A stretch of DNA of 64,000 nt. It comes from Streptantibioticus rubrisoli. Its GTDB lineage: Bacteria; Actinomycetota; Actinomycetes; Streptomycetales; Streptomycetaceae. Within the stretch, counting starts at the first letter, position 1, and each line of letters begins with the position of its first letter. The stretch is taken from positions 1 through 64,000 of the forward strand of contig NZ_JANFNH010000019.1 of NCBI RefSeq assembly GCF_024436055.1, given 5' to 3'. The position numbers were made by a program, and so were the translations under genes. The notes below the pieces were generated by a model. It made no database searches and was not told where the DNA came from. It saw nothing but the letters and a program-made list of their open reading frames with translations. This document shows, piece by piece, positions 6,984 to 54,164 of this stretch.

Positions 6984-8209
6984 GTGCCGCATCAAGCTAC
7001 GTTCGCCCTGTCGTGATGTGTCGCTCAGTTGCTGCGCCGGGAAGTACCAGACGGCCAGAATGATCACGTGGCTGAACGCGTGCGGGTCCGGGAAATTGAT
7101 GACGACGAGGGCAGGCGGTTGCTGCGGATCATCCGCAGAGGCACTGGTTCGGTGGTGACCTGGCGGCGGGCTCAGATGGTGCTGTTATCCGCGCAGGGCA
7201 TGCCCGTGGCGAAGATCGCCGAGGTGACGTTCACCAGCCCGGACCGAGTCCGCGACGTGATCCACAACTTCAACGCGGACGGCTTCGACTCGCTTTATCC
7301 CAAGTACAAGGGTGGTCGGCCGAAGACCTTCACCCTCCCGGAACGCCGGGAGATCAAGAAGATGGCCAAGTCGAAGCCGGCCGAGCACGGCCTGCCCTTC
7401 TCGACCTGGAGCCTGGCCAAGCTGGCCGACTTCCTGGTCGCCGAGGGGGTGGTCGACGACATCAGCCACGAGGGCCTGCGCATCCTGCTCCGTGAGGAGG
7501 GCGTCTCGTTTCAACGCGTGAAGACCTGGAAGACCTCACGAGACCCCGACTACGCGGCCAAGAAGGCCCGTGTCGAACACCTCTACGCGATCGCCGATGG
7601 CGAGGTCATACCGGAGGAAGGCGAGCCCGAAGTCATCTTCTGCGTGGATGAGTTCGGCCCGCTCAACCTCCAGCCGCACCCCGGCCGGCACTGGGCCGAA
7701 CGCGGCGGCAGGCACAAGGACCCCCACCGAGATCCCCGGCCTCGCCGCCGGGCGACCTACACCCGCCCGCACGGGGTCCGGCACTTGTTCGCCGCCTACG
7801 ACCTGGTCAAGGACCAGCTCTACGGGCACATAAAGAAGACCAAGAACAGGTCGAAGTTCCTGGAGTTCTGCCGTTACCTGCGCTCGCTGCACCCGATGGA
7901 CGTACGCATTGCGATCGTCTGCGACAACTACTCACCACACCTGACGACGAGGCGGTGTCAGCGAGTTGGCACGTGGGCGGCGACGAACAACGTGGAGATC
8001 GCCTACACCCCGACCACCAGTTCCTGGCTCAACCGGATCGAGGCCCAGTTCACCGCCCTGCGCTACTTCGCACTGGATGGCACCGACCACGCCAGCCACA
8101 AGGAGCAGGGAAGCATGATCCGTCGCTACATCATCTGGCGGAACAAGCATGCCGCCGACGACCGCCTCCGTGATGTGGTGAACAGGGCGAACGTAGCTTG
8201 ATGCGGCAC
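6984..8209 (+). mobile_element. Complete IS630-family insertion sequence
   Basis: The element is bounded by perfect inverted repeats: GTGCCGCATCAAGCTACG at 6984 onward matches the complement ending at 8209. Counting the flanking bases, the match runs 31 bases (6981-7011 against 8182-8212). TA dinucleotides at 6982-6983 and 8210-8211 fit the TA target duplication of IS630/Tc1 elements. The single transposase gene uses part of the right repeat for its last codons and stop. Both ends and the transposase are intact, so it may be active. Confidence 0.93.
7068..8201 (+). CDS. IS630-family transposase
   Basis: 377 residues from the GTG at 7068 (an in-frame ATG at 7029 is possible but precedes the conserved sequence). 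An N-terminal HTH region (about residues 25-70: TWRRAQMVLLSAQGM, IAEVTFTSPDRVRDVI) is followed by the DDE catalytic domain. The acidic triad is visible as FCVDEFGP, IVCDNYSPHL and SWLNRIEAQF. It performs cut-and-paste transposition into TA. Length and motifs are complete. The stop lies inside the right terminal inverted repeat. Confidence 0.93.
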   Translation: MAERVRVREIDDDEGRRLLRIIRRGTGSVVTWRRAQMVLLSAQGMPVAKIAEVTFTSPDRVRDVIHNFNADGFDSLYPKYKGGRPKTFTLPERREIKKMAKSKPAEHGLPFSTWSLAKLADFLVAEGVVDDISHEGLRILLREEGVSFQRVKTWKTSRDPDYAAKKARVEHLYAIADGEVIPEEGEPEVIFCVDEFGPLNLQPHPGRHWAERGGRHKDPHRDPRPRRRATYTRPHGVRHLFAAYDLVKDQLYGHIKKTKNRSKFLEFCRYLRSLHPMDVRIAIVCDNYSPHLTTRRCQRVGTWAATNNVEIAYTPTTSSWLNRIEAQFTALRYFALDGTDHASHKEQGSMIRRYIIWRNKHAADDRLRDVVNRANVA

Positions 8210-36922: not shown

Positions 36923-38620
36923 TCAGGGGATTTCCTCGATGCGTTCGCGGTTGAGCAGGTACGTGGGTAGATGCGGCTGCTTCGGGTCGATGGGGAAACC
37001 GTAGTCGTAGGCAAGGCTCGCCATCGCGAGCGGTCCGAGTGCTACCCGGGCGCGCGGCGCCGCCGACTCACCCCAGTAACTCCCGTGCTCCGCAAGGGCT
37101 TCGGCGAGCGCTTGGCTGAAGGCGTTGCGGTCGCCCGTGATGAGTCGGTGGAACAGGGCGACCGGCTGGTAGTCGATCCGGTTGACGAAGTCCTTCGGCG
37201 CGTGGGTCAGGGAGCCGGGCACCGATGTCTCCATGGTGGCGAGCAGCTTCTTCACGACCTCGTCCATGGAGGGGCCGGAGAAGTAGGTCTGCAGGGTGTC
37301 GATCCAGTGCAGAACGTACTCGTCGACACCATCGTCCTGTCGCAGTGTGGTCAGCGGCACCTGGCACAGCCGATTGATCCGGTCCTTCTGGCGGCACACG
37401 ATCGCGAGGTAGAGGGCGTCGAGCCAGGCACGGGCGTTCGCGGGCGGTTCGGCGGGCGTGGCGGGCAACTGCCTGACGAGGTCCTCGCCCAGGTGGCATT
37501 CCTGCGGCTGCGTGCCGGTGAACAGTGCGGTTCCGAGTTGTACGGAGGTGGCCCAGGCGTCCCAGGTGGTCAGGTGCGCGGCGTCGGGATCGGTGCCGCA
37601 GTGGGCGTGCGCGAGTGCGAGGGCGGAGGTGAAAGCGTCGCCCAGTCCTGCCGGGTCCTGGGTGAGGCGTGCTATGGACTCGGCTGTGGCGTTGGTGAGT
37701 TCGGCGATGTTCGGAGCCTTGGCTGCGGCGCGGGTGGCGAGTCGGCCGGTGCGGTCGAGGCGGACCAGGCCCCTCATCAGGCCGAGCAGTTGCGGCGGCG
37801 GCTGCAGGGAGAAGGTGCGGGTGGCGTGGTCGATGACGGTGAGCGAGGTCAGGCTGCCGCGGTACCACCAGTAGACCCGCGGGGACAGTGCGCCCGGCCC
37901 GTCCTCGTGCGCGCGCAACGCGTATGCCGCAAGGCCGTTGATGGCATCGGCCACGGAGCCGTCGGCGATCGGGTGGTATGCCAGCAGGTGCCGGTTCGGC
38001 ACGGCGACGAGGGCACCGGCGTCCGGCAGCGGCTCGCCGACCAGTTGCTGGGCCACTTCGGACAGGAACAGCGCCTTGCTGGCGGTGAACGGCGAGTCTC
38101 CGTAAACGGAGTGCAGTCTCGCCCGCCCCTCGATGGACACTTCCTCGTGTTCGACGGGTACGCGCATCAGGTTCTCGTAGGCCGCCTGCCCCAGTTCCTC
38201 CAGCCCGGCGCGCTCCACGTCTTCGTCGGTGAGGATCCGCACGCTGGTCGGCCCGTCGAGGGCGTAGGCGTAGACAAGCCCTTCGGCCACCACGCGGGCG
38301 TAGCGCATGGCGTTGGCGAGTTCAGGCGTGAACGACTCGACGGGCAGCAGCCGGGCGTGTACGCCACGCAGCAGTTCCTCGGCGCTCTCGCCACCCCGGC
38401 TTGCCCGCCGCAGAGCGGCGAAGTGGTCGGCAACCAGGTCGGGCCAACGGTCCTGCGGCGCGTGGCGGCACTTGTGCGCCAAGTTGTGCAGGGAGTGGTG
38501 GTGACCGTCCTGGGAGTAGGGCGCGGCAAGTGCCCGTAGCCGCGCGGCCTGCGCGGAAGTCAGCATGGGCAGGCCGGGGTCGGGGGCGTGCGTGGCGTTG
38601 GAGGTGTCGTCGTGTTTCAT
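36923..38620 (-). CDS. Imm49-family immunity-like protein
   Basis: 565 residues. The C-terminal ~230 residues show the Imm49 pattern: ARAWLDALYLAIVCRQKDRI, LCQVPLTTLRQDDGVDEYVL, HWIDTLQTYFSGPSMDEVVK and RVALGPLAMASLAYDYGFPI. Imm49 proteins are predicted antitoxins of polymorphic toxin systems. The N-terminal ~300 residues form a second region (EGLVYAYALDGPTSVRILTD, YWWYRGSLTSLTVIDHATRT) not recognised. No toxin gene is adjacent, so it may be an orphan immunity protein, or the family may have another role in streptomycetes. Confidence 0.75.
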   Translation of the reverse strand: MKHDDTSNATHAPDPGLPMLTSAQAARLRALAAPYSQDGHHHSLHNLAHKCRHAPQDRWPDLVADHFAALRRASRGGESAEELLRGVHARLLPVESFTPELANAMRYARVVAEGLVYAYALDGPTSVRILTDEDVERAGLEELGQAAYENLMRVPVEHEEVSIEGRARLHSVYGDSPFTASKALFLSEVAQQLVGEPLPDAGALVAVPNRHLLAYHPIADGSVADAINGLAAYALRAHEDGPGALSPRVYWWYRGSLTSLTVIDHATRTFSLQPPPQLLGLMRGLVRLDRTGRLATRAAAKAPNIAELTNATAESIARLTQDPAGLGDAFTSALALAHAHCGTDPDAAHLTTWDAWATSVQLGTALFTGTQPQECHLGEDLVRQLPATPAEPPANARAWLDALYLAIVCRQKDRINRLCQVPLTTLRQDDGVDEYVLHWIDTLQTYFSGPSMDEVVKKLLATMETSVPGSLTHAPKDFVNRIDYQPVALFHRLITGDRNAFSQALAEALAEHGSYWGESAAPRARVALGPLAMASLAYDYGFPIDPKQPHLPTYLLNRERIEEIP

Positions 38621-43872: not shown

Positions 43873-44111
43873 GCGGTCCGGCGAGCGCAGCCGAAATCCC
43901 CGCACCTCGCGCCACATCCCGGCTTGGCGTGAGATGAACGAGATGCCAGGTCGCGAGCTAGTATGCGCGACGGTCGCTCGTTGGTCCGAAGCCCGGCCGG
44001 ACGCGCCCCCGGCCGGGACCCAGTACCGACTGCTCGAAGCTGGTCAGAGAGCCAGGCGACGCCGACGGGAACCGCGAAGGCGGCCCCGCGCAACAGATGG
44101 AGACACCCAGC

Positions 44112-46496
<2,385 letters not shown>

Positions 46497-46964
46497 CCAA
46501 CTACCCTGTGGGGACCGTGAGTTCGCGTTCGGTGAGGTGTTGACGCGGTACCTGGCGAGGTGCGTCGGGCAGTGCGGCGAGAGGGCGCGGCGCTGGTGTC
46601 GGTGCGCAAGTGCCGTGCTGGCAAGGGTAGTTGCTCTCGGGATCGAGAGGCTGCGCCGTCCCGCCGCAGTGTGAACTGCGCGGCTCCGTAGGCAGTTTCG
46701 CGCCAAAAGTGGCTAACTGCGGCGGGTAAGTGCGCCCGATATCGCCGCGTTGATCACGGAGTTTCGGCACACGAGCGGCACGCGGGCACATCTCGTCGAC
46801 ATTCCTGTGACAATCCTGTGATTCGCTTGTGCGCATACTGGCCGAGCTTCTGCGAGGTCAATTCCTCCGTATGCAGCAGCAGAGCCATCCCCGCACGAGA
46901 GGACGCTGCCCTGCTCACGGCCGCCCGCACGCACAGCAGACACCGCACCCGACGCCGGGCCGAC
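46497..46964. other. Region upstream of the pgs-like operon
   Basis: About 470 bases. The open frame of the following gene extends back to a GTG at 46818, but codon bias is poor before about 46910, so most of this is probably untranslated. It is the expected site of the operon promoter, although no convincing -35/-10 pair was found. CCTGTGA is directly repeated near 46804-46820. Confidence 0.45.
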
Positions 46965-49283
46965 ATGCCTCTGCTCGGCGGTGTACGGCCACCGATCGCC
47001 GCACTGGCCTGCCTGCTGCTGGCAGTTGCCGCGTTCACGGCGCTCGGTTTCGAAACCATCCATGAACAGGACGTGCCGCAGGCGGTACGGGACGCGGAAC
47101 GCCGGATCGCCGAGGATGCCGCGGTTTCCGTCGGGACTTCGATAGGGGCCAAGGCCACCTCGCTGCGCCACTTTGCCGCGTCGCCCCCGGTCGCCGCCGA
47201 AGAGACGCCGACGACCGTGGTCAAGTCCCTTCTGCGGAAGATGACTTCCGTGCGCGGTGGTGTGCTGCTCGACCCGCACACGGGCAGAACGCTGGCCGCA
47301 GCCGGGGAACCGGTGCCGCTGACCGGGGTGGACACGACGGGACTCGCCCACGCTGGCACCGCCAACGTGCCACCCCGACTGGCACATTCGGGTACCACCA
47401 AACCCCGACTGCTGCTCTTCGCACGGGTTACCGTGCCAGCAGCGAGCGGGAATCGGGACGAAAACCAGGACCAGGCAATCGACTTGGTGCGGGACCAGGC
47501 GCCCGAACGTGAACTCCTGCTGGTCGCCTCCGAGCAGATCACCGCCCCCCCGGTGTTCGGCGCCGGTCGCACCGGTCAACTGGTGGACCGGAACGGAAGG
47601 GTGCTGGCCGCCGTCGGCACCGCCAGCACGGCCCTGGCACCCGGTGCTGGCGACCGCGCGCTGCCCGCCGCCGCGGCGAGTGCCGCCAAGGCCGTGCCGC
47701 ACACCGCTGGCGCCTCCGGCAGCATGCTCGGCGAGAGTGCCAACGGACTGCGTCGCGTCGCCGGTTGGGCATCCATCAGCGTGGCGCACGGCAAGGACGA
47801 CACCGCCGATCTGGGCCTGACCGTGCTCACGTACAAGGGCGTGGCCCCTACGAGGGGCAACGCCGACCACACCCGGTTCGCGCTCGCCGCGGCAGTCACG
47901 CTGGCGGTGATCGCCGTGCTGGTGACCTTACTTCTGTGGGCAGCCGTGCAGCACCCACTGCTGCGGCTCCATTTGTCCGCCGCCCGGCTGGCCAAGGGCG
48001 CCTGCGACACGGAAGCGCGCGAGGGGCTGGATCGGCCGGTGCCGGTCCCCGCGTTCGGTGAGCCCCGCAGGGCCGGGCGAGCCCTTGAGTCCATACGCCG
48101 TCAACTCCTGGGCGAGGCCGGGCCGGAGACTGTTCGGCCGGTGCGCCGCCGCCCGGGTGTACGGCCGCTGGTCCTTGTCTGCGCGCTACTGGTCGCCGCG
48201 TGGGGAGTACCACTGATGTTCCTGGTCAACCGCGTGCAGGCGGCCAAGGCCATACCGGCAACGACCGTTGCCGACCAGCAGGCACGCACCGAGTCCGCGG
48301 CGGACCGGCTGCGGCAGTCCCTCGGCCAGAGCTACACCGACCTGGCGGAGGTGGCCTCGCGCATCTCCGGTGAGCCGAGGGGCCGGGAGGCGGACACGCT
48401 GCGGCGCGCCCTTGCCGAACACCCCAAGTATCGTTCGCTGTACGTGCTGGATCGCACCGGCGCCATCGTGCTGCGGGTGGGCAAGCGGCCGTTGCGCACG
48501 ATCGTCCACGCACCGACCGGTGACGGGATCACCAAGGTCAACACCTCGGGCAAGATCCCCGCGATCGCCGCCTATGCCCAGATCCCGGCGGCGAAGTCCG
48601 CGAGGGCCACCACCACGGGCGCCCCCGCCGTGCTCTTCGCGGAGATCGACGTGAACGCGCTGAACAGCCTGTTGCCCCGGCCGAGCCTCGGTAACGTCTG
48701 GCTCGTCGACGACCACCATGAGGTGCTCGCGGCGAGCGTCGGCTTCCGTGCCTTCCAGTCCCTGCCCAGCCATGGCCTCACACGCCTCGCCGCCAGGACA
48801 AAGAGCACCGGCGGGACCGCGGGCAGCCCGGCGTCGGCCGTGCTGAACGCGGAGACGGCACCGGGCGCGGGCCCGTCGGTCGCGGCCGCAGCTCCACTGA
48901 CGCGATTCGGACCCGCCGCCGGGCTCGGCTGGCGGGTGGTCTCCGCCGAGCCCGCGGCCGCCCTCAAGCTGACGCCCTACCAGGTCCGGTCGCACACCAT
49001 GCTGGCCGGTCTGCTGGCCCTGACCGTGGGCGTCGCCTGCCTGAGCTGGCTGCACATCGTGGTGGTCAGACCACTGCGGGCCCTCACCGGGCACGCGGAA
49101 CGGCTGGCTGGTGGCGATCGCCGGACCGTGCTGTACCCGGTCCACCAGGATGAGTGCGGTTCGGTGACGCGCAGTCTGGAACTGCTCCGGCAGGCGTTGG
49201 CCGAGCGGGATCGCCGCGCTCGACCTGACCCGGCGTCCCCCTCGGCTCCGTCATCCTCGCCCGACAGCGCGCCGCAGCCGTAG
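46965..49283 (+). CDS. Membrane protein with two extracellular sensor-HAMP modules and no output domain
   Basis: 772 residues if started at the ATG at 46965; a GTG at 46818 would give 821. Module 1 has TM1 (AALACLLLAVAAFTALGF), an extracellular domain of ~290 residues, TM2 (AAVTLAVIAVLVTLLLWAAV) and a HAMP-like linker. Module 2 has TM3 (PLVLVCALLVAAWGVPLMFL), a second extracellular Cache-like domain (RSLYVLDRTGAIVLRVG), TM4 (LAGLLALTVGVACLSWLHIV) and a HAMP (RPLRALTGHAERLAGGDR, ECGSVTRSLELLRQAL). The C-terminus is a Pro/Ser tail, with no kinase, cyclase or methyl-accepting domain. It sits 15 bases before pgsB, so it probably serves polymer synthesis as a sensor or scaffold (inference). Confidence 0.8.
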   Translation: MPLLGGVRPPIAALACLLLAVAAFTALGFETIHEQDVPQAVRDAERRIAEDAAVSVGTSIGAKATSLRHFAASPPVAAEETPTTVVKSLLRKMTSVRGGVLLDPHTGRTLAAAGEPVPLTGVDTTGLAHAGTANVPPRLAHSGTTKPRLLLFARVTVPAASGNRDENQDQAIDLVRDQAPERELLLVASEQITAPPVFGAGRTGQLVDRNGRVLAAVGTASTALAPGAGDRALPAAAASAAKAVPHTAGASGSMLGESANGLRRVAGWASISVAHGKDDTADLGLTVLTYKGVAPTRGNADHTRFALAAAVTLAVIAVLVTLLLWAAVQHPLLRLHLSAARLAKGACDTEAREGLDRPVPVPAFGEPRRAGRALESIRRQLLGEAGPETVRPVRRRPGVRPLVLVCALLVAAWGVPLMFLVNRVQAAKAIPATTVADQQARTESAADRLRQSLGQSYTDLAEVASRISGEPRGREADTLRRALAEHPKYRSLYVLDRTGAIVLRVGKRPLRTIVHAPTGDGITKVNTSGKIPAIAAYAQIPAAKSARATTTGAPAVLFAEIDVNALNSLLPRPSLGNVWLVDDHHEVLAASVGFRAFQSLPSHGLTRLAARTKSTGGTAGSPASAVLNAETAPGAGPSVAAAAPLTRFGPAAGLGWRVVSAEPAAALKLTPYQVRSHTMLAGLLALTVGVACLSWLHIVVVRPLRALTGHAERLAGGDRRTVLYPVHQDECGSVTRSLELLRQALAERDRRARPDPASPSAPSSSPDSAPQP

Positions 49284-49297
49284 GAGGATCAACTGAC

Positions 49298-50635
49298 GTG
49301 CTCTTCCTGTACCTTGTGCTGCTCTTGAGTTGTGCCGTGCTGCTGGTCGCCGGAGTGCTGGAGCAGCGGCGCCACTACGCCTCGCTGGAGCAGATCCCGA
49401 CCCGGGTGCTGGTCAACGGCATCCGGGGCAAGAGCTCGATCACCCGGTTGTGCGCGGGGGCGCTGCGCGGCGGTGATGTGGCCACCGTCGCCAAGACCAC
49501 CGGCACCGCGGCCCGGTTCATCCACCCGGACGCCACCGAGGAACCGGTGTACCGGAAGTTCGGGATCGCCAACGTCGTCGAGCAGATAGGCATCGTCCGA
49601 CGGGCCGCGGCGTACCGGCCGGACGCCCTGGTGATCGAGTGCATGGCGGTGATGCCCGCGCTTCAGGAGATCAACCAGGAGAAGCTGATCCGCTCCACCA
49701 TCGGCGTGCTGTGCAACGTACGCGAGGACCATCTCGCCGAGATGGGGCCGACGTTGGACGATGTGGCTCGCTCGCTGTCCCGGTCGATGCCGGTCGGCGG
49801 GGTCTGTGTCACCGCGGAGCGGGAGCGGCTGCACATCCTCAAGGAGGAGGCGGACCGGCGCGACTGCCGCCTGGTCGCGGTCGATCCCGACTCGGTGACC
49901 GACGCCGAGTTACGCGGCTTCAGCTGGTTCACCTTCAAGGAGAACGTGGCCATCGCGCTGGCGGTGGCGGAACTGCTGGGTGTGGACCGGCGGACCGCGC
50001 TTCGCGGCATGTGGGACGCTCCGCCGGACCCCGGCGTGCTCTCCGTCGAACGCTACCGCACACCAGACGGCAAGCGGTTGCGCTTCGCCAACGTCTTCGC
50101 CGCGAACGACCCCGAGTCAACCCTGATGAACGTCCGACAGCTGGAGGATCTCGGCGCCATACACCGACCGCTGAACGTGGTCATCAACTGCCGCCCCGAC
50201 CGGGTGGAACGCAACGGGCAGATGGGCGCGATCGTCCCCGAGCTCAACCCGGAGACGGTCTTCCTGATCGGGCATCCCACCAAGAGCGCCCGAGACGGCA
50301 TCCCCGCGCGCTGGTCGTCGGGGCGGGTGGTGGACCTGGGCGGTGACCGGCGCGCCGCACAGGAGCTGACGGACGCCATCCTCGCCGAACTGGCCCCGGA
50401 TTCCTCGTTGGTGGCCGTCGGCAACATCCACGGTCAGGGCGAACTGTTCCTGGAGCGGCTGGGCTCACTGCCGCCGGACAGCGCCAAGGAGCCGCCCGCT
50501 GGCGCCCGTCCGCCCGAGCCGGAGCCGTTCGCCTCGGTGGCTTCGCTGGACGGTCCGGCGCTCGACGCACACATCCCACGAACCACCCCTGCGGACCGCG
50601 ACCTCACGCACGACCCGACAAGGAAACCGTTGTGA
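49298..50635 (+). CDS. pgsB: Poly-gamma-glutamate synthase subunit PgsB/CapB-like
   Basis: 445 residues; amide ligase of the Mur-ligase-like CapB family that polymerises glutamate using ATP at the membrane. An N-terminal membrane segment (LFLYLVLLLSCAVLLVAGVL) is followed by the P-loop RVLVNGIRGKSSITRL, ECMAVMPALQEIN and CNVREDHLAEMGPT, the family equivalents of the Mur ligase core. The first ~395 residues match the usual length; a Pro-rich ~50-residue C-terminal tail is extra. GGAGG precedes the start. The stop overlaps the GTG of pgsC (GTGA), as expected for a B-C complex. Confidence 0.9.
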   Translation: MLFLYLVLLLSCAVLLVAGVLEQRRHYASLEQIPTRVLVNGIRGKSSITRLCAGALRGGDVATVAKTTGTAARFIHPDATEEPVYRKFGIANVVEQIGIVRRAAAYRPDALVIECMAVMPALQEINQEKLIRSTIGVLCNVREDHLAEMGPTLDDVARSLSRSMPVGGVCVTAERERLHILKEEADRRDCRLVAVDPDSVTDAELRGFSWFTFKENVAIALAVAELLGVDRRTALRGMWDAPPDPGVLSVERYRTPDGKRLRFANVFAANDPESTLMNVRQLEDLGAIHRPLNVVINCRPDRVERNGQMGAIVPELNPETVFLIGHPTKSARDGIPARWSSGRVVDLGGDRRAAQELTDAILAELAPDSSLVAVGNIHGQGELFLERLGSLPPDSAKEPPAGARPPEPEPFASVASLDGPALDAHIPRTTPADRDLTHDPTRKPL

Positions 50636-51114
50636 TCCCCGTCAACGTCACCCCGCAGACCGCCGCGCTGGGGATCGCCGTCGGCCTGGTCTTCTCGCTG
50701 GTCTGCTATCTGACCACCAATCTCTCCCCCGGTGGCATGATCACCCCCGGCTGGCTGGCGCTGACCCTGGTCACCGATACGGGCCGGGCCGGGATGATGA
50801 TCGGCGTCACGGCGCTCACCTTCGTCGCGACCAAACTCCTCCAGCGCCATGTGATCCTGTACGGCAAGCGGCTGTTCGCCGCCGTGGTGTTGTGCGCGGT
50901 GCTGCTGCAGACCACGGTGATGCTCGCGCTCCAGCACGAGTTCCCGCTGCTGTACGGCGCCCAGACCCTTGGCTTCATCGTGCCGGGGCTGATCGCCTAT
51001 CAGCTGGTCCGGCAGCCGGTCGCGGCCACCGCCATCTCCACCACCGCGGTGACCCTGGGCAGCTATGTGGTGCTCGTCGCCGGGTTGCTGCTGGGGGCAC
51101 TACCCATGGGCTGA
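50632..51114 (+). CDS. pgsC: PgsC/CapC-like membrane protein
   Basis: 160 residues, slightly longer than the ~150 of Bacillus PgsC. It has four or five hydrophobic segments (AALGIAVGLVFSLVCYLTTN; LALTLVTDTGRAGMMIGVTA; LFAAVVLCAVLLQTTVMLAL; ISTTAVTLGSYVVLVAGLLL). The region LSPGGMITPGWLAL matches the conserved loop of the family (G-G-(L/M)-(V/I)-x-P-G-Y-x-A). CapC partners CapB in polymerisation. It starts at a GTG overlapping the pgsB stop. Confidence 0.88.
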   Translation: MIPVNVTPQTAALGIAVGLVFSLVCYLTTNLSPGGMITPGWLALTLVTDTGRAGMMIGVTALTFVATKLLQRHVILYGKRLFAAVVLCAVLLQTTVMLALQHEFPLLYGAQTLGFIVPGLIAYQLVRQPVAATAISTTAVTLGSYVVLVAGLLLGALPMG

Positions 51115-51165
51115 CCGAGCCGGGGCATTCGCGTCCGCCATCCACCCGCCCCTGAGGAGGTTTCC

Positions 51166-52212
51166 GTGGGCATCGATCGCACCCCGCGCCGTGGGCCCAG
51201 TCGGCGTCAGGTCCTGGGTGCCGTCGGACTGGCCGCCGCCGGGGCGGTCGGCGGATACGCGTGGGACCGCTTGCTCGGCGGCGGACCAGGCGGCCCTTTC
51301 GGCGATGGCCCGGTGCCGACCAGCGGCTACCGGTTCGAGCGCCGTCACGCGCCCGCCCGTACGGTGGTACACGCCCCCGATGGCCAAGTCGTCGCCACCC
51401 TCACCGACGGTGCCCGCACCGCGCTGCTGGTCGGCCCGACCCGTACCTGGGACGAGCCGCGTACCACCAGCGCGGTGGTGCGCAGCAACGCATGGGTACG
51501 GCTGATGCCCGGCGCATGGCGGGCTGGCAAGGAGCAGTCCCCGTGGTTCCGGGAGTGGCTCCCCAAGGCCCTCGCCGACCGCAGCCCGGACGCCATCGGG
51601 GTGGCCTTCGAGTACGGCGACGGGGCGCACGACCACCGCACCGCGTCCGGCCTGCGTTACGCGGGCAAGGCCCACTTCGGTCCACGAGTTCCCGGGCGGT
51701 CGCCGACATCGTTCCACTACCTCGACGAACAGTCCGACTTCTACGACTACCTCGGCACCCCCTGGACCTTTCCGGACGGCACCCGCAGGTACCCGCAGCA
51801 GGCGCGCTACGGCGACGTGGACTGCTCCGGCTTCATGCGCCTGGTCTGGGGCTACCGCATGGGCTATCCCATGCACGCCAGCAACGCCCCGGGTATCGGC
51901 CTGCCACGCCGGGCCTACGCCATCGCCACCCGGGCCCCGGGTGTGCTGTTGATCGAGGACAGCGGTCGGCGGCCCACCGACATCAGTCCGCTGCAACCGG
52001 GCGACCTGGTCTTCTTCTCCATCGACATCGGCCGACCGCACGGCATCGACCACTGCGGCATGTATCTGGGGCCGGACGAGGAGGGGCATCCGCGCTTCTA
52101 CTCCAGCCGTTCCCGGGCCAACGGGCCCACCATGGGCGACCTGGCGGGCCGCGCGACGCTGGACGGCGACGGCTTCTACGCCCAGGGGCTGCGGATGGCC
52201 CGCCGCCTGTGA
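51166..52212 (+). CDS. Tat-exported NlpC/P60-family (C40) peptidase
   Basis: 348 residues. The N-terminus RRGPSRRQVLGAVGLAAAGA is a twin-arginine signal. A beta-rich region at about 50-190 follows (VVHAPDGQVVATLTDGARTA), then the NlpC/P60 core: DVDCSGFMRLVWGYRMGYPM with Cys220, a GDLVFFSID strand and GIDHCGMYLG with His296. C40 peptidases cleave gamma-glutamyl bonds in peptidoglycan and, in PgdS-type enzymes, poly-gamma-glutamate. Placed 51 bases after pgsC, it is a candidate polymer hydrolase or release factor. Cell-wall hydrolysis is the alternative. Confidence 0.87.
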   Translation: MGIDRTPRRGPSRRQVLGAVGLAAAGAVGGYAWDRLLGGGPGGPFGDGPVPTSGYRFERRHAPARTVVHAPDGQVVATLTDGARTALLVGPTRTWDEPRTTSAVVRSNAWVRLMPGAWRAGKEQSPWFREWLPKALADRSPDAIGVAFEYGDGAHDHRTASGLRYAGKAHFGPRVPGRSPTSFHYLDEQSDFYDYLGTPWTFPDGTRRYPQQARYGDVDCSGFMRLVWGYRMGYPMHASNAPGIGLPRRAYAIATRAPGVLLIEDSGRRPTDISPLQPGDLVFFSIDIGRPHGIDHCGMYLGPDEEGHPRFYSSRSRANGPTMGDLAGRATLDGDGFYAQGLRMARRL

Positions 52213-52271
52213 ACCGCCCGAAGCCGTCGTCGTACCCCGGCCGATTGCCGTTTCCCACGAGAGAACCCGCC

Positions 52272-54164
52272 ATGGCCACCACTCAGGACCGGAGAGACCA
52301 CCGGCGCCCCTTCACCCGCGACAGGCACTGCCAAACGGCCTTTGACCACTGGGAGTTGCCCGCACTGCTGCTGATCCTGGGGGTGGCCGCGGTGCTCTAC
52401 GCCTGGGGCATCGACCGGGCCGCGATACACCCGTACTACGGCGCCGCCGTGCGGTCGATGGCGGCGAGCTGGCACGCCTTCGCCTTCGGCGGGCTGGACC
52501 CGAGCGGCTCGGTCACCGTGGACAAGATCCCCGGGGCGCTGTGGCCGCAGGCGCTCTGCGTGAGGTGTTTCGGGCCGCACAACTGGGCTGTAGCGCTGCC
52601 GCAGGTGGTGGAAGGCGTACTCGCCGTCTGGGCACTCCACCGGATCGTACGCGCCTGGGCAGGCGCACCGGCCGGGCTGCTCGCCGCCCTGGTACTCACC
52701 CTCACCCCGATCACCGTCGCACTGGATCGGCACACCATTCCGGACACCTTGCTCGTGCTGCTGCTGGTCCTCGCGGCCGGATCACTGCAGAGGGCCGTCA
52801 GCACCGACAGGTTGCTGCCGCTGCTCGCCTGCGGAGCATGGGTGGGGCTGGCCTTCCAGGCCAAGATGCTCCAGGCGTGGCTCGTGCTACCGGTCTTCGC
52901 CGTGGTGTACCAACTGGCCGCGTCCGGCCCCCGGTTGCACCGGATCGGCAGGTTGCTGCTCGCCGGTTGCACCACGCTCGCCGTCTCCTGCTCCTGGCTG
53001 CTGCTGGTGTGGGTGACTCCCGCCGCACACCGTCCCTACCTCGACGGAACCACGAACAACAGCCCCTTCACCCTGGTCTTCGGCTACAACGGGCTCAGCC
53101 GTTTCGGCCACGACCAGCAGGCACTGGGCGCCGTCGCGGGCACCGCCGCCAGCCGCAGCACCGGCAACACCGGTTGGACCATGCTCGTCAACCAGACCGT
53201 GGGACCGCAGATCGCCTGGTTCCTGCCGCTCGCGGTACTGGCTTTGGTGCTCGGCCTGTTGTGGCGTGCCGGGCAGCCGCGCACCGACAGACTGCGGACG
53301 GGACTGCTGCTCTGGGGCGGCTGGCTGGTCGTGCATGCCGTGGTCTTCAGCGCCTCCAACGGCAACCACGGCTACTACACCGCCGTACTGGCCCCGGCTC
53401 TGGCCGCCCTGACCGGCGGTGGACTGGCCCTGTTCTGGCGCGAGTACCGCGATGGGGGGCCGCGCCGGGCCGCGCTGCCCGCCGGAGTCGCACTGACCGT
53501 ACTGTGGGCCGCGGCGATCGACGGCCCGCACGGCGGATCCGCGCCCTGGCTGCTGCCGGTGGTGCTGATGCTCGGCCTGTGCGGGGCCGTCGGCCTGTGG
53601 TCGCGTGGGCCGCGCACAACGCGGCGCGCGTTGTGCGGTGCGCTCGCTGCGAGCCTGGCGTCCGTGCTCCTCGCTCCGGCCGTCTGGGCGGCCGCGTGCC
53701 TGGATCCGCTGTACGGCGGCTCGTCGATCTCGCCGCTGGCCGGACCGGTAGGCGCCGGGTACCACGACATGCGCCACCACCCATCCAGGGTCCAGCGCAA
53801 CGCCCTGAACGCCCCGTCCGCGCGGGACAGCGCGCTGCTGCACTACCTCGCCGCACACCACTCCCGGGAGAGGTACCTGCTCGCCACCCAGGCCGCCTAC
53901 GGCGCCGAGCCGTTGTTGCGGGCCACTCCTCAACCCATGCTGGTCATGGGTGGCTTCACCGGACTGACCCCGCACCCAACCGCGCCGCAGCTCACAGCGC
54001 TGGTCTCCGCCCACCAGTTGCGCTACGCACTACTGACCACGCGCCGCCCGTCCATACCGGCAACGGTCTGGGTGAAGAGGCACTGCACCCGCATACCACC
54101 GCGCGCGTACGGCCGGACCTCGGACGGAAGCTTCACCCTCTACGACTGCGCCCCGGGCAGCTGA
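52272..54164 (+). CDS. GT39-type membrane glycosyltransferase (ArnT/PMT-like)
   Basis: 630 residues with about 11 membrane segments. The first lumenal loop reads YYGAAVRSMAASWHAFAFGG and DPSGSVTVDKIPGALWPQAL, the pattern of actinobacterial GT39 enzymes that use polyprenyl-linked sugars. The acidic residue at its start (GIDRAAIHPYY) fits the catalytic base position. The C-terminal part is periplasmic (QLTALVSAHQLRYALLTTRR). It is 59 bases after the NlpC/P60 gene and on the same strand. Sugar modification of an exported polymer or of a surface component is the simplest reading (inference). Confidence 0.87.
   Translation: MATTQDRRDHRRPFTRDRHCQTAFDHWELPALLLILGVAAVLYAWGIDRAAIHPYYGAAVRSMAASWHAFAFGGLDPSGSVTVDKIPGALWPQALCVRCFGPHNWAVALPQVVEGVLAVWALHRIVRAWAGAPAGLLAALVLTLTPITVALDRHTIPDTLLVLLLVLAAGSLQRAVSTDRLLPLLACGAWVGLAFQAKMLQAWLVLPVFAVVYQLAASGPRLHRIGRLLLAGCTTLAVSCSWLLLVWVTPAAHRPYLDGTTNNSPFTLVFGYNGLSRFGHDQQALGAVAGTAASRSTGNTGWTMLVNQTVGPQIAWFLPLAVLALVLGLLWRAGQPRTDRLRTGLLLWGGWLVVHAVVFSASNGNHGYYTAVLAPALAALTGGGLALFWREYRDGGPRRAALPAGVALTVLWAAAIDGPHGGSAPWLLPVVLMLGLCGAVGLWSRGPRTTRRALCGALAASLASVLLAPAVWAAACLDPLYGGSSISPLAGPVGAGYHDMRHHPSRVQRNALNAPSARDSALLHYLAAHHSRERYLLATQAAYGAEPLLRATPQPMLVMGGFTGLTPHPTAPQLTALVSAHQLRYALLTTRRPSIPATVWVKRHCTRIPPRAYGRTSDGSFTLYDCAPGS

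What the first reader, a model, noticed from the sequence alone, without database searches (positions are those of the whole stretch)
46965..54164. A poly-gamma-glutamate-like polymer operon in a streptomycete, without capA/pgsA
Five tightly spaced + strand genes encode a duplicated sensor-HAMP membrane protein, PgsB/CapB, PgsC/CapC (GTGA overlap), a Tat-exported NlpC/P60 peptidase and a GT39 glycosyltransferase. In Bacillus, CapB and CapC act with CapA/PgsA and CapE. Here CapA is absent from the locus, and a glycosyltransferase and an output-less sensor take its place. This suggests a modified or sugar-decorated anionic polymer, or an otherwise different export route.
Basis: partly seen in the sequence, partly recalled or inferred. 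Interest (0 to 1): 0.78.

Follow-up and report, generated by a model that had tools for sequence, protein, structure and literature searches.

The report
Polyglutamate operon with glycosyltransferase replacing CapA
A streptomycete carries genes for a polyglutamate-type surface polymer in which the usual partner protein CapA is missing and a membrane sugar-transferring enzyme sits in its place, a recurring arrangement that may mean a sugar-decorated polymer.

Summary
The five genes are real: a tandem dCache-HAMP membrane protein (S), PgsB, PgsC, NlpC/P60 and GT39. A second, diverged copy of the set lies elsewhere in the genome. In 37 sampled Streptomycetaceae loci S, PgsB and PgsC are always together, NlpC in 36. 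Beside them stands CapA (14), this GT39 (13) or neither (10), never both. The GT39 loci are not one clade: gained more than once, or lost repeatedly; in six loci GT39 sits where CapA sits elsewhere. This GT39 clade was found only in genomes with pgs genes. This genome's two CapA-family proteins are not of the pgs-linked clade, and 7 of 14 GT39-type genomes have no CapA family match. CapA loci also have S, so S does not replace CapA; GT39 probably does. CapA-type and bare loci carry a secreted protein whose predicted fold best matches gamma-polyglutamate hydrolases, supporting a gamma-glutamyl product. Best reading: a CapA-free PgsBC polymer, probably L-rich, modified outside the membrane by GT39. 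No chemistry is shown. New variant of a known kind.

The parts
46818..49283 (+). S: membrane protein with two successive TM-dCache-TM-HAMP units and no output domain found; start at GTG 46818 or ATG 46965 undecided
   Evidence: HAMP PF00672; AlphaFold mean pLDDT 80.7; Foldseek and VIA-align best matches are chemoreceptor dCache domains, Z up to 16.8; start discussed
49298..50635 (+). PgsB/CapB-type Mur-ligase-family amide ligase; P-loop NGIRGKSSITRL
   Evidence: TIGR04012 377 bits, above the equivalog cut-off; P-loop invariant in 11 of 11 aligned PgsB
50632..51114 (+). PgsC/CapC-type membrane protein, overlapping pgsB by 4 bases
   Evidence: PF14102 116 bits; TIGR04011 below its cut-off
51166..52212 (+). 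Probably exported NlpC/P60 cysteine peptidase with twin-arginine motif; Cys220 and His296 present
   Evidence: PF00877; catalytic residues compared over 81 loci; alignment
52272..54164 (+). GT39/GT-C membrane glycosyltransferase (PMT_2 plus YkcB_C), of a clade found only in genomes with pgs genes
   Evidence: PF13231 and PF24878; the only PDB sequence match is ArnT, weak, E 0.016; distribution
49275..49300 (+). Shine-Dalgarno-like AGGAGG before pgsB; a like GAGGAGG precedes nlpC near 51154
   Evidence: read from sequence

Best explanation
The locus is a poly-gamma-glutamate-type synthase of an architecture that is common in Streptomycetaceae. PgsB (cytoplasmic ATP-dependent amide ligase) and PgsC (membrane partner) make and export a gamma-linked glutamyl polymer (inferred from families). 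The tandem dCache-HAMP protein S is a constant part of this architecture and probably senses an extracellular ligand and gates the synthase through its HAMP domains (inferred). NlpC/P60 trims the polymer or the wall outside (inferred). CapA, reported elsewhere to be linked to D-glutamate content, is absent, so the polymer should be L-rich (inferred). In its stead a GT39 enzyme transfers a sugar from a polyprenyl-phosphate donor, outside the membrane, to the polymer or its anchor (inferred). Shown here: gene content, conservation of the core, exclusivity of CapA and this GT39 in Streptomycetaceae, GT39 loci that are not one clade, and the absence of pgs-linked CapA from this genome.
For: S, PgsB and PgsC occur together in all 37 sampled loci, NlpC in 36 and cut off by a contig end in one; CapA 14, GT39 13, neither 10, both 0 (Fisher p 0.00035, not corrected for relatedness). 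The core trees reject one clade of GT39 loci: S+B+C, AU p 2e-49; PgsB alone with the mixture model and without L082 and L085, p 0.00014. GT39-clade hits above 830 bits: 16 in 37 PgsB-bearing genomes, 15 of them beside pgsB, and 2 in one of 37 PgsB-negative genomes, both beside pgsC at contig ends. Second complete copy in the same genome. PghP-like fold of the protein beside CapA-type and bare loci. PgsBC alone made L-rich PGA in B. subtilis (PMC6029982). A CapA relative, MslH, is a peptide epimerase (PMC9266682 passages).
Against: No product, transcript or activity data. PgsC is under the NCBIfam equivalog cut-off. Ten of 37 loci have neither CapA nor GT39, so neither is required. That GT39 loci are not one clade can mean repeated loss instead of repeated gain. 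Outside the family one locus (L200) has B, C and CapA together with a distant GT39-family gene (211 bits) and an h5-like match, so CapA and a GT39 relative can be neighbours. The NlpC/P60 enzyme known to cut PGA (PgdS) cuts D-L bonds (PMC5880399 passage), an awkward partner for an all-L polymer. One GT39 of the clade is not near pgs genes (G054, 15 kb read). The GT39 tree alone does not reject the upstream GT39s lying outside the others (AU p 0.134). The PghP-like protein is not in this locus, only elsewhere in this genome. The discussion of PMC6029982 also reports earlier work in which PgsBC without PgsA made no PGA.
Confidence: 0.5

Rival explanations
1. An ordinary PgsBCA system whose CapA acts from elsewhere in the genome (one of the two PF09587 proteins on contigs C75 and C27).
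For: Two PF09587 proteins above cut-off exist in this genome. All 10 genomes whose locus has neither partner have a PF09587 protein somewhere, as do 125 of the 150.
Against: The two score 52 and 25 bits against the pgs-linked CapA profile, linked ones 560-783. Of 14 GT39-type genomes, 7 have no PF09587 match.
Confidence: 0.12
2. GT39 is a neighbour that decorates another surface molecule (protein, teichoic-type polymer, lipid) and has nothing to do with the PgsBC product.
For: GT39/PMT enzymes have diverse acceptors (recalled); more distant GT39 relatives are common in these genomes (35 of 37 PgsB-negative genomes match the profile).
Against: This particular clade was found only in genomes with pgs genes, its loci are not one clade, it sits in three different positions beside the core and it avoids CapA.
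Confidence: 0.2
3. PgsBC here make a different amide polymer (another amino acid or linkage), so neither CapA nor a classic hydrolase fits.
For: PgsC under the equivalog cut-off; genomes with GT39-type loci only rarely have the PghP-like protein (3 of 13, against 23 of 24 others).
Against: PgsB is well above the equivalog cut-off and 78-83% identical to PgsB of three CapA-type loci (L047, L063, L089), a kind of locus that carries a protein with the fold of gamma-PGA hydrolases.
Confidence: 0.15
4. S, the output-less sensor, replaces CapA.
For: S stands just upstream of pgsB in this window.
Against: S stands in all CapA-containing loci too: 26 of 26 and 14 of 14.
Confidence: 0.03

Closest known systems
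Bacillus pgsBCAE / capBCAE poly-gamma-glutamate synthase with PgdS
   Same: PgsB ligase and PgsC membrane protein in tandem; an NlpC/P60 peptidase in the locus (PgdS is an NlpC/P60 gamma-PGA hydrolase: PMC5880399 passages; that its gene follows pgsBCAE is recalled)
   Different: No CapA/PgsA in the locus; a constant tandem dCache-HAMP protein; a GT39 enzyme; NlpC has one domain where PgdS has three
Engineered B. subtilis with pgsBC and no pgsA (PMC6029982, abstract and discussion read)
   Same: PgsBC without PgsA; reported to make much PGA, D/L 5/95 against 75/25 with pgsA
   Different: Artificial overexpression; no sensor and no glycosyltransferase
Glutaminylglycan of Natronococcus occultus (PMC4243693 section 7 and PMC11915815 passages read)
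   Same: A gamma-linked polyglutamyl/glutaminyl wall polymer that is glycosylated; the proposed genetic basis includes CapB
   Different: Haloarchaeal; no link to a GT39 gene seen in what I read; polymer of this locus not known
YkcB / ArnT / PMT-type GT-C glycosyltransferases
   Same: PMT_2 and YkcB_C domains above Pfam cut-offs; weak PDB match to ArnT
   Different: A distinct clade tied to pgs loci; acceptor and donor unknown
CapA-family peptide epimerase MslH (PMC9266682 passages read)
   Same: Relative of the CapA that GT39 replaces; one linked CapA (L063) matches the MslH model weakly (45 bits, cut-off 700)
   Different: Absent from this locus; shown on lasso peptides

Membership tests
PgsBCA/CapBCA poly-gamma-glutamate synthase | PgsB/CapB ligase | tested here: met
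   TIGR04012 377.3 bits, cut-off 222.7
PgsBCA/CapBCA poly-gamma-glutamate synthase | PgsC/CapC membrane protein | tested here: met
   PF14102 115.6 bits, cut-off 27; the stricter NCBIfam equivalog TIGR04011 is not reached (73.3 of 96.45 bits)
PgsBCA/CapBCA poly-gamma-glutamate synthase | CapA/PgsA encoded in the locus | tested here: not met
   No CapA in the locus; genome copies unlinked and of other clades
PgsBCA/CapBCA poly-gamma-glutamate synthase | small PgsE/CapE protein | not tested
   not searched for
PgsBCA/CapBCA poly-gamma-glutamate synthase | product is gamma-linked polyglutamate | not testable with these tools
   needs chemistry
PgdS-type gamma-PGA hydrolase | NlpC/P60 domain with catalytic Cys and His | tested here: met
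   PF00877 above cut-off; Cys220, His296
PgdS-type gamma-PGA hydrolase | three tandem NlpC/P60 domains | tested here: not met
   one stretch only
GT39/PMT-YkcB glycosyltransferase | PMT_2 and YkcB_C domains | tested here: met
   74.6 and 63.4 bits, both above cut-off
GT39/PMT-YkcB glycosyltransferase | lipid-linked sugar donor and identified acceptor | not testable with these tools
   needs biochemistry
dCache-HAMP transmembrane receptor | extracytoplasmic dCache domain | tested here: met
   two predicted; Z up to 16.8, rmsd 3.5, 213 aligned
dCache-HAMP transmembrane receptor | cytoplasmic output domain | tested here: not met
   sequence ends 26 residues after the last HAMP match, no output family found
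PghP-type gamma-PGA hydrolase (h5 of sister loci, not in the window) | PghP fold | tested here: met
   3a9l rank 1: E 2.9e-6; Z 14.4, rmsd 3.2, 176 aligned, tied within 1 with N-formylglutamate amidohydrolase entries
PghP-type gamma-PGA hydrolase (h5 of sister loci, not in the window) | sequence match to a curated hydrolase family | tested here: not met
   no Pfam family at E 0.01 for one member (L059); no NCBIfam family at E 0.001 for another (L050)

The most novel reading that the evidence does not exclude
A bacterial glycosylated L-gamma-polyglutamate: streptomycetes use two interchangeable modules on one PgsBC core, a CapA module (D-residues by epimerisation, with a PghP-like hydrolase) and a GT39 module (sugar decoration of an L-polymer), under a constant tandem dCache receptor that gates synthesis. 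It would be a bacterial counterpart of the haloarchaeal glutaminylglycan, with a named gene for the sugar step.
Probability: 0.27. Interest if true: 0.85.

Novelty: new variant of a known kind. Interest (0 to 1): 0.6.

Why it matters
About a quarter of sampled Streptomycetaceae (37 of 150) carry a polyglutamate-type synthase, and the paper searches named in Tried and rejected listed no study of one there. The CapA/GT39 exchange gives a natural experiment on what CapA does, names a gene for possible sugar decoration of polyglutamate, and links a receptor-like protein to polymer synthesis. It could also yield new L-rich or glycosylated polyglutamates.

Tried and rejected
Rejected: S as CapA's substitute (present in CapA loci). 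Rejected: CapA acting in trans as the general rule. Considered and left open: that the GT39 of the 'upstream' loci (Gu) was passed from the 'downstream' kind (Gd). The rooted GT39 tree nests it there (two 97* branches) but the AU test does not reject the alternative (p 0.134). What stands is that the core trees reject one clade of GT39 loci; gain against loss is not settled by that, only favoured by the three positions of the gene.

A promoter/terminator scan gave nothing above chance (0 promoter-like, 0.2 expected; 2 terminator-like, 1.9 expected); streptomycete promoters are poorly covered. phmmer found no relative of PgsB among solved structures. PgsC was not found in viral contigs. My ORF caller in GC-rich DNA includes shadow frames, and the NlpC profile drifted onto such frames, so NlpC counts come. 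In one search four loci (L141, L143, L151, L153) showed no PgsC; one search found it in all four. In one search the row for L201 was taken from a wrong frame; one search corrects it. A regex check of the NlpC cysteine saw only 23 loci, all GT39-type; one search replaces it. For the folds of h5 and S a family not listed is not excluded.

The amino-acid-binding motif of chemoreceptor dCache domains was only looked for by eye and from memory, and not seen in S; not a test. The 80 named loci are the 80 most like the query out of 361, so their counts are biased; one search is the even sample, and the two sets overlap in organisms.

Papers: searches (and 91, 102 for precedents) listed no study of a streptomycete PgsBC locus or of GT39 with PgsBC. 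Several lists were capped: one search showed 20 of 26, 20 of 22, 10 of 26, 12 of 3,208, 12 of 40, 10 of 6,950. Only open-licence PubMed Central papers are searched. Passages of PMC5751247, PMC4497714 and PMC13082233 were also seen; the first two do not contain words beginning Streptomyces or actinobacteria, the third none beginning Streptomyces.
Full report
WHAT IS THERE. The window is bases 1-64000 of contig C15 of a 7.26 Mb genome. Gaps are 14, -4, 51 and 59 bases. PgsB passes the NCBIfam equivalog model (377 bits, cut-off 222.7). PgsC passes Pfam (116 bits, cut-off 27) but stays under the NCBIfam equivalog cut-off (73 of 96 bits). NlpC/P60 and GT39 (PMT_2, YkcB_C) pass Pfam cut-offs. The Tat motif is visible by eye, and the Tat model is just under its cut-off.

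A SECOND COPY. The same genome holds a second complete S-B-C-N-G set on contig C38, 57, 82, 81, 64 and 68% identical for S, B, C, N and G. It is followed by h6, a hydrolase of the PAF-acetylhydrolase family (family named from a relative, L024; the gene in L203). In the S+B+C tree the C38 copy groups with loci of Streptomyces sp. RPT161 and Streptantibioticus ferralitis, and the window copy with nine loci including those of S. natalensis, S. lydicus and S. nigrescens. Two unnamed same-genus genomes have contigs of the same length as those of RPT161 and S. ferralitis, so the window's genome is probably of that genus (inference). The window copy has lower third-position GC (0.84-0.93) than the C38 copy (0.92-0.96), which fits a separate, perhaps imported, lineage.

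THE CORE AND ITS ALTERNATIVE PARTNERS. PgsB above cut-off was found in 37 of 150 Streptomycetaceae genomes, this one included. I fetched up to 20 kb round the 37 loci of the 36 other genomes and read their gene order. S and PgsC are in 37 of 37, NlpC in 36; in the last (L136) the contig ends inside pgsC. CapA stands upstream of S in 14, GT39 of this kind beside the core in 13, neither in 10, both in none (Fisher p 0.00035; not corrected for relatedness). Including the two own loci: 14, 15, 10, 0. The 80 named loci most like the query give the same picture: with the C38 copy 26 CapA, 39 GT39, 16 neither, 0 both; these are the 80 best of 361 and are biased. S is in all CapA loci, so it is not a stand-in for CapA. 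NlpC was not found in three named GT39 loci (L014, L015, L037) and one bare locus (L082), so it is not strictly required.

OUTSIDE THE FAMILY. In 396 genomes of the phylum 21 had PgsB above cut-off. Of 17 loci outside Streptomycetaceae, 14 show B, C and CapA together; one (L198) shows B and C near the contig start; two of one family (L193, and L167, a 3.2 kb contig) show S and B with a protein like h5 (below), and C in L193. So S-B-C is an architecture apart from the common B-C-A. A result against a strict rule: L200, one of the 14, also matches the GT39 profile at 211 bits and the h5 profile at 111 bits, so CapA and a distant GT39 relative can be neighbours outside the family.

GT39 IS TIED TO pgs GENES. 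A profile of the locus GT39s gave 16 hits above 830 bits in 15 of the 37 PgsB-bearing genomes. Fifteen are beside pgsB; the other (G054:C431) has no core gene in the 15 kb read, in a genome whose own locus has neither CapA nor GT39. In 37 of the 113 PgsB-negative genomes only one, G028, had such hits (two), and both lie beside pgsC and nlpC at contig ends, so that genome has the locus, broken by assembly. Counted that way the clade is in 16 genomes of 38 with pgs genes and 0 of 36 without (p 4e-6); as first scored, 15 of 37 against 1 of 37 (p 1e-4). The 37 were low-numbered handles without a PgsB match, not a random draw, and relatedness is not corrected for. Core trees reject one clade of GT39 loci: S+B+C, AU p 2e-49 (simple model, with a long-branch warning for L082 next to the Gu loci); PgsB alone, mixture model, L082 and L085 left out, p 0.00014. 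So GT39 was gained more than once or lost repeatedly. Its three positions (downstream; upstream on the same strand; upstream on the opposite strand) favour separate gains. The six same-strand upstream loci (Gu) have it in the position CapA has in the CapA loci. The rooted GT39 tree nests Gu among the downstream kind but the test does not reject the alternative (p 0.134).

CapA IN THIS GENOME. Two PF09587 proteins are encoded on other contigs. Against a profile of pgs-linked CapA they score 52 and 25 bits; the 14 linked CapAs score 560-783 and a second, unlinked group in other genomes 277-340. Of the 14 GT39-type genomes 7 have no PF09587 match.

A HYDROLASE THAT POINTS TO THE PRODUCT. In CapA-type and bare loci a protein of about 330 residues with an N-terminal hydrophobic segment (h5) stands next to the core: 23 of 24 non-GT39 loci and 1 of 13 GT39 loci (p 9e-8). 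No Pfam or NCBIfam family matched the members tested. Its AlphaFold model (mean pLDDT 86) best matches the phage poly-gamma-glutamate hydrolase PghP (E 2.9e-6; Z 14.4, rmsd 3.2 over 176 residues), tied with N-formylglutamate amidohydrolase entries and close to YndL in complex with PGA (Z 13.4). A shared fold does not prove activity, but this is support from outside PgsBC that the core makes a gamma-glutamyl polymer. By genome, h5 is in 23 of 24 with CapA-type or bare loci and in 3 of 13 with GT39-type loci only, this genome among the three, on contig C16 (a 23-bit match in G026 not counted).

S. The model of S (mean pLDDT 80.7, 41 sequences) shows two successive TM-dCache-TM-HAMP units. Best solved matches are amino-acid chemoreceptor ligand domains (CtaA, PctA, Mlp37; Z about 16.8, rmsd 3.2-4.2 over 208-222 residues). 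No output domain was found. Since S accompanies PgsBC in every Streptomycetaceae locus sampled, gating of the synthase is my inference.

NlpC. Cys220 and His296 are kept in 27 of 30 Gd loci (in the other three the gene was not found), 3 of 3 opposite-strand (Gr) and 26 of 26 CapA loci, and 11 of 16 bare ones. The cysteine is serine in all 6 Gu loci and in 3 bare loci of the same clade, and alanine in L059 (tree). The protein has probably lost peptidase activity in some lineages.

HOW IT MOST LIKELY WORKS. Shown: the gene facts above. Known from papers: overexpressed PgsBC without PgsA made 26 g/L PGA with D/L 5/95 against 75/25 with PgsA (PMC6029982, abstract and discussion; that discussion also reports earlier contrary results); a CapA-family protein, MslH, is a peptide epimerase, and a cited title speaks of peptide epimerisation in PGA biosynthesis (PMC9266682 passages; the cited paper itself not read); Natronococcus has a glycosylated gamma-linked polyglutamine wall (PMC4243693 section 7; PMC11915815 passages). 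Inferred: the window operon makes an L-rich gamma-glutamyl polymer, and GT39 adds a sugar from a lipid carrier to it or to its anchor, in the functional niche that CapA holds in sister loci.

WHAT IT IS AND IS NOT. By PgsB and PgsC it belongs with the PGA synthases; by the lack of CapA it is not a PgsBCA system in the strict sense. PMC11915815 (passages) reports CapB only in Gammaproteobacteria, Bacilli, Synergistota and some Archaea in its own genome set, so its presence in a quarter of sampled Streptomycetaceae seems under-reported, although an NCBI model names it. I rate it a new variant of a known kind.

Noticed in passing
L050:5122-6096 (-) and 32 relatives in sister loci; own genome G000:C16:13325-14149 (-): A protein family with an N-terminal hydrophobic segment (no Pfam match for the member tested) whose predicted fold best matches the phage gamma-PGA hydrolase PghP; in sister pgsBC loci with CapA or with neither partner, and on another contig in this genome.
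   Followed up: yes
L048, L049, L051, L056, L068, L069, L058, L078, L087 (NlpC/P60 gene): The catalytic cysteine of the NlpC/P60 protein is serine in one clade of loci (alanine in L059), suggesting loss of peptidase activity.
   Followed up: partly
L005 / L203:2-1582 (G000:C38): A complete second S-B-C-N-GT39 operon in the same genome, followed by a PAF-acetylhydrolase-like enzyme whose relatives stand beside 26 of 40 GT39-type loci.
   Followed up: yes
G028 contigs C18 and C56 (L209, L210): Two pgsC-nlpC-GT39 sets each ending at pgsC with a contig end, so the genome scores as PgsB-negative; probably an assembly break between similar copies.
   Followed up: partly
L200 (outside the family): A locus with PgsB, PgsC and a weak CapA match (66 bits) together with a distant GT39-family gene (211 bits) and an h5-like match (111 bits).
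   Followed up: no
window 44097-46496 (+): A short UvrA-like protein (below the UvrA equivalog cut-off) directly upstream of the operon; a similar 805-residue gene lies near one sister locus (L072).
   Followed up: no
window 36923-38620 (-): A 565-residue protein whose last part is an Imm49 immunity domain (163 bits), suggesting a toxin-immunity context.
   Followed up: no
window 7029-8201 (+): A DDE-type transposase-like gene; the window has lower GC (0.686) than the C38 region (0.71), in keeping with a mobile chromosome part.
   Followed up: no
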